DNA of 64,000 nt, from NCBI GenBank assembly GCA_000309945.1, contig CM001633.1, forward strand, positions 3,374,199 to 3,438,198. The letters are read 5' to 3'. Every line of letters starts with the position of its first letter. Position 1 is the stretch's first letter. The DNA is from Leptolyngbyaceae cyanobacterium JSC-12 (GTDB lineage Bacteria > Cyanobacteriota > Cyanobacteriia > Leptolyngbyales > Leptolyngbyaceae). The position numbers were made by a program, and so were the translations under genes. The notes beneath the pieces were generated by a model that was not told where the DNA came from, ran no database searches, and saw nothing but the letters and a program-made list of their open reading frames with translations. This document shows positions 7,347-52,420 of the stretch, in pieces.

Positions 7347-7760
7347 ATGAGCCAATTTGTTAGACTTCTACTCCTCGCCCCAACGGCATTTGCACCGCTA
7401 TTGTCATTGATTGTGGTTGCCCCAGCTCATGCCAGTTCTGAGTCTTGGGTCAAGGTTTCAGAAGACTATGCTTGTGTGCGAACAGTGACGCGGGAGCCGA
7501 AAAAGCTCGTGTGCAAACGGCTCGGCACAGGGGCTTCTGAGGCTGGAAAGGTGGTTGACTTAACGCAGGTGAGAGAAGCTTCCGCCGTGGATGAAGTCAC
7601 GACTCCCAAAGACGATTTGCCTGATACATTTGAGTTGACAGACGAGGAGAGTGATGCTTCTGTTGCACTCTTTGGTTGCGACTGCCCGGCATGTGTACGA
7701 TCGCTGCGGAAATTGCGCAGCCTGACATCATCAGCTCGGTTTGAGCCTAGAGTGTGTTGA
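7347..7760 (+). CDS. Secreted protein of unknown function, C-terminal Cys cluster
   Basis: 137 residues with a clear signal peptide (hydrophobic core about 6-25, cleavage after PAHA near residue 29). The mature part has Cys in DYACVRT and VCKRL, an acidic middle (PDTFELTDEESD), and a C-terminal cluster FGCDCPACVRSLRKLR followed by a final Cys. The CDCPAC spacing suggests disulfides or metal binding. I do not recognise a named family. Its stop overlaps the start of the aspartoacylase remnant. Likely periplasmic or lumenal. Confidence 0.7.
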   Translation: MSQFVRLLLLAPTAFAPLLSLIVVAPAHASSESWVKVSEDYACVRTVTREPKKLVCKRLGTGASEAGKVVDLTQVREASAVDEVTTPKDDLPDTFELTDEESDASVALFGCDCPACVRSLRKLRSLTSSARFEPRVC

Positions 7761-8147
7761 GTCGCAAAATTCATCGAGTCGCGATCGTGAGGGGAACTCA
7801 CGGCAACGAGTTGGCTGGAATTTATCTGGTTAAGAAGTTTCAGCGTTACCCGGATTTAGTTAGCCGTCACAGTTTTGAAACCATGCCACTACTAGCAAAT
7901 CCACAAGCTTTTGCCCTCCAGCGGCGCTATGTCGAGCAAGATTTGAACCGCTGTTTTCTCCCAACTGAGTTGCAAACTCCAAGGGCAACAAGTTACAAAG
8001 CATTGCGAGCAAAGGAAATCTATCAAACGCTTGTTACCAATCTTTATCAAAGAAGCCGCCTACTACGAGAAAGGCATCGCCCTGTGCCTGACTGAACAAC
8101 AAACACTTACTCTCTTCCCTATCACCCATTTCCTTGCTAGTCGCTAG
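7754..8147 (+). pseudogene. Aspartoacylase (AstE/AspA family) remnant, internal deletion
   Basis: The first frame (7754-8095) encodes the N-terminal third of a zinc carboxypeptidase-like aspartoacylase: RVAIVRGTHGNELAG with the zinc-binding His and Glu, then LLANPQAFALQRRYVEQDLN with the family's NP and DLNR motifs. It stops at 113 residues, where the family runs to about 290-300. The region with the third zinc ligand (usually DLHTTT) is absent. From 8043, in another frame, the DNA reads AAYYEKGIALCLTEQQTL up to a TAG at 8145-8147, which looks like the enzyme's usual C-terminus. The two ends therefore survive around a deletion of roughly 170 codons plus a frame change. Not expected to be active. 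Confidence 0.75.
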
Positions 8148-8218: not shown

Positions 8219-9694
8219 ATGTATATCGTACAAATTGCCTCTGAGTGTGCCCCTGTGATTAAAGCTGGAGGCTTAGGCGATGTTGTGTACGGTCTCAGCC
8301 GGGAATTAGAAATTCGAGGTCATACTGTCGAAATTATTCTGCCCAAGTACGACTGTATGCGCTACGACCACATCTGGGGATTGCACGATGCCTATAAAGA
8401 TCTCTGGGTGCCCTGGTACGGTGCGGCAATCCATTGCTCGGTTTATTGCGGCTGGGTGCATGGGCGGCTTTGCTTCTTTATTGAGCCTCACTCCCAAGAC
8501 AATTTTTTTGATCGCGGCATTTACTATGGGCACAAGGATGACAATATGCGGTTTGCCTTCTTCAGTAAGGCAGCCTTGCAATTTTTACAGCAAAGTGGCA
8601 AGCGTCCAGATGTAATTCATTGTCATGATTGGCAAACAGGGCTAGTGCCCGTCATGCTCTACGAAATTTACCAATGGCATGGCATGGGTAATGTACGAGT
8701 CTGCTACACCATTCACAACTTCAAGCATCAAGGCATCGGCGGTACTGATATTCTCTGGGCAACGGGACTCAATCGAGAATCTTATTACTTTGAATACGAT
8801 CGCTTGCGAGATAACTTTAACCCTTTTGTGCTCAATTTCATGAAGGGGGGAATTGTTTACTCCAACCACGTCACCACCGTATCACCGCATCATGCCTGGG
8901 AAGCCCATATGGGCGAGTTTGGATATGGGTTGGGGCATACCTTGCACGTGCATCAAAACAAGTTCAGCGGTGTATTGAACGGCATTGATTATGATGTGTG
9001 GAATCCAGAAGTTGATCGCTACATTCCCTATCAATTCAGCAAAGATGACCTGGAGCAAAAAGCGCTCAATCAAAAAGCCTTGCGTGAACGTCTCTGGTTA
9101 GACCATAGCAATAAGCCGATCATTGCTTACATTGGTCGCCTGGATGATCAAAAAGGCGTCCATCTTGTACATCATGCGATTTATTATGCTCTCCATCGAG
9201 AAGCACAGTTTATCTTGCTCGGCTCTCCCACCGAAGCAGGGATTGCCTCCTGGTTCTGGCATGAGAAGAACTTCCTCAACAACAACCCAGATGTGCATCT
9301 GGAGTTAGGGTTTAATGAGGAACTGTCGCACCTGATTTATGCTGGGGCAGACATGATTATTGTGCCCAGCAACTTTGAGCCGTGTGGGCTAACTCAAATG
9401 ATTGGGCTGAAGTATGGCACAGTGCCTATTGTGCGGGGTGTGGGCGGTTTGGTAAATACGGTTTTTGACCGCGATTATGATCAAACTCATCCGCCAGAAG
9501 AACGCAATGGCTATGTGTTCTACCAAACGGATTATCAGGCATTAGAGTCGGCAATGGATCGGGCGATTGGCTTGTGGTATCACTATCCCGAAGAATTTGA
9601 AAAGTTGCAAATTCAGGGCATGAATTACGACTATTCCTGGAATCATCCTGGACAAGATTATGTCGCAATTTATGAGCATATTCGTCACAAGTAA
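8219..9694 (+). CDS. glgA: Glycogen synthase (ADP-glucose, GT5)
   Basis: Transfers glucose from ADP-glucose to the growing alpha-1,4-glucan of glycogen, the main carbon store. The N-terminal ADP-glucose loop KAGGLGD is at residues 15-21, HCHDWQTGLVP and YTIHNFKHQG are in the first Rossmann domain, and the retaining-transferase segment EPCGLTQM begins near Glu386, followed by VRGVGGL. At 491 residues it is full length. AGCGAGGAGTCAG just upstream gives a strong ribosome site. Cyanobacteria often carry two glgA paralogs; I cannot say firmly which this is, though length and N-terminus resemble the GlgA2 type. Confidence 0.95.
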   Translation: MYIVQIASECAPVIKAGGLGDVVYGLSRELEIRGHTVEIILPKYDCMRYDHIWGLHDAYKDLWVPWYGAAIHCSVYCGWVHGRLCFFIEPHSQDNFFDRGIYYGHKDDNMRFAFFSKAALQFLQQSGKRPDVIHCHDWQTGLVPVMLYEIYQWHGMGNVRVCYTIHNFKHQGIGGTDILWATGLNRESYYFEYDRLRDNFNPFVLNFMKGGIVYSNHVTTVSPHHAWEAHMGEFGYGLGHTLHVHQNKFSGVLNGIDYDVWNPEVDRYIPYQFSKDDLEQKALNQKALRERLWLDHSNKPIIAYIGRLDDQKGVHLVHHAIYYALHREAQFILLGSPTEAGIASWFWHEKNFLNNNPDVHLELGFNEELSHLIYAGADMIIVPSNFEPCGLTQMIGLKYGTVPIVRGVGGLVNTVFDRDYDQTHPPEERNGYVFYQTDYQALESAMDRAIGLWYHYPEEFEKLQIQGMNYDYSWNHPGQDYVAIYEHIRHK

Positions 9695-52111: not shown

Positions 52112-52420
52112 GGGGGTAGAGGAGAGGGGGAGGTGAAGGAGATGGGGGGAGAAAAAGCAGTCCGGAGGTGATGGAAATGAGCGATCACGCGTTTGCCCAA
52201 TCATCAGCGCAGATTTGGATACTGATTGTAGCGAACAGCTACATCCTTTGCGGCTGATTCTTTTGAAATTCTTCTGACTTCTGACTCTTTTCTTTTGGGC
52301 AAAAGACACCGCATTTTCCAATTCCCGACTTTCTGTTTCCAACTTTTTGCTCCCATTCTCCGTTCTTGAGCTACAACTGGCTCTAGTAAAGTCCTGTTCT
52401 GGGATAAGGGGCTTTGGCGC

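What the first reader, a model, noticed from the sequence alone, without database searches (positions are those of the whole stretch)
7754..8147. Aspartoacylase gene reduced to its two ends
The N-terminal zinc motif HGNE and DLNR survive, and the usual C-terminal AAYYEKGIALCLTE appears about 290 bases later in another frame. About 170 codons with the third zinc ligand are missing. This catches a metabolic gene in mid-decay, just before glgA.
Basis: partly seen in the sequence, partly recalled or inferred. Interest (0 to 1): 0.5.

Follow-up and report, generated by a model that had tools for sequence, protein, structure and literature searches.

The report
Aspartoacylase pseudogene with internal deletion
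A cyanobacterium has lost the middle of an enzyme gene that a sister species still carries whole in the same place; this looks like an ordinary, fairly recently broken gene.

Summary
Window 7754-8038 encodes the first ~94 residues of an aspartoacylase (NCBIfam NF002601, E 2.2e-32, profile 3-93 of 293), with HGNE and DLNR; the last ~25 residues follow in another frame (E 2.9e-8). A same-genus genome, G002 (apparently JACYLN010000081.1, Leptolyngbyaceae cyanobacterium C42_A2020_001), carries the intact gene between the same upstream ORF and the same glgA. Alignment shows one 524-bp deletion with 2-4 bp shared at its ends, shifting the frame. The lost part holds the third zinc-ligand His and the catalytic Glu (roles recalled; aligned). 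The one-contig own genome gives no other NF002601 match, only a distant 382-aa family member. No comparable short form was seen among 45 family matches in 58 genomes. The gene is patchy: 99 of 291 genomes of the class over cut-off. The 5' remnant against G002 still shows constraint (dN/dS about 0.13), so the break looks recent. This is a deletion pseudogene: real, ordinary, low interest.

The parts
7754..8038 (+). 5' remnant of the aspartoacylase gene (GTG start; about 94-95 codons; HGNE at 7802, DLNR at 7940)
   Evidence: NF002601 and PF24827 matches; lies in a segment, upstream ORF included, 77% identical (586 of 765 aligned positions) to the G002 locus
8037..8038 (+). Deletion joint: 524 bp of the intact gene are missing here; 2 bp (CC) are placed in both flanks by the alignment, and G002 has CCCA at both ends
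8039..8108 (+). 3' remnant (23 of the last 25 codons of the intact gene) in a shifted frame; the frame runs on to a TAG at 8145-8147
   Evidence: NF002601 264-291 and PF04952 matches; 84% identity over 79 aligned positions to G002, the BLAST block ending at 8113 after a 2-base gap
8114..8142 (+). Stretch between the BLAST blocks, not aligned with G002; the original TGA stop is lost, and G002 has about 252 bp, partly simple repeat, here before the glgA leader
7347..7760 (+). Upstream ORF, 137 aa, with a signal-like N-terminus (judged by eye) and a C-terminal CDCPAC; overlaps the remnant's start; 77% identical in G002 at the same place
8219..9694 (+). glgA-like glycogen synthase gene, open over 491 aa, 94% identical to G002 and 90% to G001

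Best explanation
This is a pseudogene of a cyanobacterial aspartoacylase (zinc-dependent amidohydrolase, AspA/AstE family). A single short-homology (illegitimate) deletion removed 524 bp from the middle of the gene. It took out the third zinc-ligand histidine, the catalytic glutamate and most of the C-terminal domain, and shifted the frame. The remaining ORF ends out of frame at 113 aa and cannot form the active site. Shown: both remnants, synteny, the deletion and its length relative to G002, lack of another NF002601 match in the genome. Inferred: that the deletion came first rather than slow decay, the short-homology mechanism, and loss of enzyme activity.
For: Both ends match the same equivalog model in two frames. 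The intact 295-aa gene lies at the same place in G002, between the same upstream ORF and the same glgA. Frame and coordinates give a 524-bp deletion. The remnant is nearest to G002 of the 15 intact relatives compared: 72 of 94 residues, the next being 58 of 94. No other NF002601 match at E <= 0.001 in the 5.53-Mb single-contig genome. No comparable short form among the 45 matches. Differences from G002 at codon positions 1, 2, 3 are 14, 5, 36 in 89 codons, dN 0.115, dS 0.889, so most divergence accumulated under constraint and the break is late. Own breaks 2 of 20 columns that are invariant in the 15 intact proteins, among them the first G of GGTHGNE.
Against: The 113-aa ORF is still open, keeps a GTG codon shared with G002 at its start and has low dN/dS, so a short product under selection is not formally excluded. 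No acceleration of the own branch is visible: 7 own-derived against 5 G002-derived residue changes, 7 unclear; intact relatives break 0 to 4 invariant columns in the leave-one-out control; and at the looser 90% threshold own breaks 2 of 32 columns while intact G002 breaks 3 of 34. No reads, second strain or expression data were examined.
Confidence: 0.95

Rival explanations
1. Assembly collapse or sequencing error: the genome has the full gene and the assembly lost 524 bp.
For: No reads could be examined here.
Against: The genome is one contig, rated 100% complete. In G002 the deletion ends share only about 4 bp, so no repeat is seen on which an assembler would collapse.
Confidence: 0.03
2. 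The 113-aa ORF is a retained short protein, for example a zinc-binding or dimer-poisoning fragment, with a function of its own.
For: The ORF is open and differences from G002 lie mainly at third codon positions.
Against: It lacks the His and Glu of the active site. No relative among the 45 matches has a comparable short form (the shortest other open frame is 199 aa, in a frameshifted copy). Low dN/dS is expected anyway if the deletion is recent.
Confidence: 0.02

Closest known systems
NF002601 / PRK02259 aspartoacylase (copy intact in G002, apparently JACYLN010000081.1)
   Same: Same subfamily, GTG at the same start place, same neighbours; 72 of 94 residues identical in the 5' remnant
   Different: 524 bp missing, frame shifted, both parts below the family's 180-bit cut-off (109.5 and 31.3 bits)
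Solved aspartoacylases (3nh4 aspartoacylase-2; 2o4h/2o53 aspartoacylase)
   Same: The intact G002 protein aligns nearly end to end, 5.5e-71 and 1.6e-64
   Different: The window product lacks the stretch that holds DLHTTT and the glutamate of IEVG (LEMG in 3nh4)
Other broken copies in the class: G012:C37:9010-9871 (two frames); G154:C122:24524-24799 (C-terminal fragment with a TGA inside)
   Same: Same subfamily, broken reading frame
   Different: Different lesions; each of these genomes also has a full-length copy

Membership tests
Functional aspartoacylase (NF002601) | Whole-protein score over the curated cut-off (180 bits) | tested here: not met
   109.5 bits (5' part) and 31.3 bits (3' part); 112.4 and 33.2
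Functional aspartoacylase (NF002601) | N-terminal zinc motif HGNE and substrate-binding DLNR | tested here: met
   Present at 7802 and 7940; alignment (residue roles recalled)
Functional aspartoacylase (NF002601) | Third zinc-ligand His (DLH..T) and catalytic Glu | tested here: not met
   Lie in the missing 524 bp; present in G002 and in solved relatives (roles recalled)
Pseudogene of NF002601 | Disrupted reading frame relative to an intact orthologue at the same place | tested here: met
Pseudogene of NF002601 | No functional product in the cell | not testable with these tools
   Needs expression and enzyme assays

The most novel reading that the evidence does not exclude
The truncated 113-residue protein is still made and kept for a new, non-catalytic role, such as binding substrate or zinc.
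Probability: 0.02. Interest if true: 0.35.

Novelty: new member of a known kind. Interest (0 to 1): 0.12.

Why it matters
It is a clean example, read by synteny, of loss of a patchily distributed enzyme in cyanobacteria: of the three held genomes of the genus one has the gene, one a remnant and one no match (that one 84% complete). Annotation should mark it as a pseudogene, not as an aspartoacylase. Beyond that it is ordinary gene loss.

Tried and rejected
An intact paralogue was sought in the own genome. PF04952 found only the C-terminal remnant, NF002601 only the two remnants, and PF24827 the 5' remnant plus a match inside a 382-aa ORF at about G000:C1:5143343-5144491 (ORF). That protein is distant from the aspartoacylase (25 of 125 residues, E 0.006), does not match NF002601 at E 0.001, and its one NCBIfam hit is DoeB far below cut-off (42.7 of 402.7 bits). 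It was rejected as a replacement copy on sequence; shared function was not tested.

Conservation of the short form was sought and not found (nor did I see a comparable two-ended form among the rows listed, whose list is cut). Fragments of other kinds do occur there (G154:C122, G286:C67, G195:C104/C119); of these I looked no further, so some may be contig ends. A scan of genome contigs with the 113-aa protein gave 3 loci from 60 pattern matches: the G002 contig and two non-cyanobacterial records at 44-45% identity, not followed up; records of the own genome may be left out of that collection. Plasmid records gave no similar DNA.

Papers: 'aspartoacylase' + 'cyanobacteria' gave 8 papers and 'aspartoacylase' + 'bacterial' + 'pseudogene' gave 9, seen as listings with abstract starts. 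Passages of two were seen: PMC10206079 says that some enzymes annotated as M14 or succinylglutamate desuccinylase/aspartoacylase family are isoaspartyl dipeptidases; PMC11288746 names slr1705-as, an antisense RNA of aspartoacylase in Synechocystis. Neither bears on this locus.

One search used wrong coordinates for the G002 spacer (it hit the region further upstream); repeated with the right ones. dN/dS of the upstream ORF failed because the G002 frame stops earlier; only its codon-position counts were obtained (23, 9, 64 in 134 codons).

Full report
Observation. Residues 5-95 match the aspartoacylase model NF002601 at profile positions 3-93 of 293 (2.2e-32). The frame 8019-8147 matches positions 264-291 (2.9e-8). 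Pfam agrees: the catalytic domain PF24827 is cut at position 99 of 192, and the C-terminal domain PF04952 is present only from position 54 of 76. This is far beyond chance.

The intact counterpart. In a same-genus genome, G002, NF002601 finds a full-length gene (375.7 bits, 299-aa open frame) at C142:51034-51903. The glgA orthologue starts at 52236 (94% identical) and the same small ORF lies upstream (77% identical).

The lesion. BLASTN of the window against that locus aligns the upstream ORF and the 5' remnant up to G002 (L040) position 1773, and the 3' remnant from 2296, overlapping by two bases of the window. The offset between the two blocks is 524 bp, which is not a multiple of three. In G002, CCCA stands at both ends, and no longer shared stretch is seen there. 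So one short-homology deletion explains the loss and the frame shift. A second difference lies at the 3' end: the original stop is lost and the spacer before the glgA leader is about 223 bp shorter than in G002 (29 against 252 bases between the aligned blocks). G002 has ATTACCC-like repeats there; the G002 spacer has no match in the own genome at E <= 0.001. Which of the two spacers is ancestral is not known.

What was lost. The missing part holds DLHTTT and the glutamate of IEVG, both aligned with solved aspartoacylases. By established knowledge of the family (recalled) these are the third zinc ligand and the catalytic residue. The remnant keeps HGNE and DLNR.

Age. Between the remnant and G002 there are 14, 5 and 36 differences at codon positions 1, 2 and 3 in 89 codons (dN 0.115, dS 0.889); the first 387 codons of glgA give dN 0.036, dS 1.139, and the upstream ORF 23, 9 and 64 differences in 134 codons. 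Residue changes polarised by 14 other intact proteins are 7 own, 5 G002, 7 unclear. Own breaks 2 of 20 columns invariant in the 15 intact proteins; intact proteins in leave-one-out break 0 to 4. At a 90% threshold own breaks 2 of 32 and intact G002 3 of 34. So there is no sign of long decay: the gene was broken late.

Distribution. In the order, 15 of 42 genomes hold a match over cut-off, and in an even draw of the class 99 of 291. Among the three held genus members G002 is intact, the own genome is broken and G001 has no match (84% complete), with a different, membrane-protein-like ORF before its glgA (judged by eye). glgA was found next to the gene in 1 of 15 intact loci, G002 (flanks of at most about 1.5 kb, some shorter at contig ends). 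Repeated loss fits this patchiness; transfer was not tested.

Verdict.

Noticed in passing
window 7347-7760: A 137-aa ORF with a signal-like start (by eye) and a C-terminal CDCPAC motif, without a Pfam match up to E 1; relatives in the two other genus members, in G001 on two contigs other than that of glgA.
   Followed up: partly
L040 2375-2626 (G002), against window 8114-8142: The spacer before glgA in G002 is about 223 bp longer and holds ATTACCC-like repeats; pieces of 38-48 bases resemble four other places in G002, with no match in the own genome at E <= 0.001.
   Followed up: partly
L064 2005-2890 (G012:C37): A second aspartoacylase copy split between two frames, in a genome that also has an intact copy.
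   Followed up: partly
L061 1844-2992 (own genome): A distant AspA/AstE-family protein of 382 aa with HGDE in place of HGNE; its substrate is unknown.
   Followed up: partly
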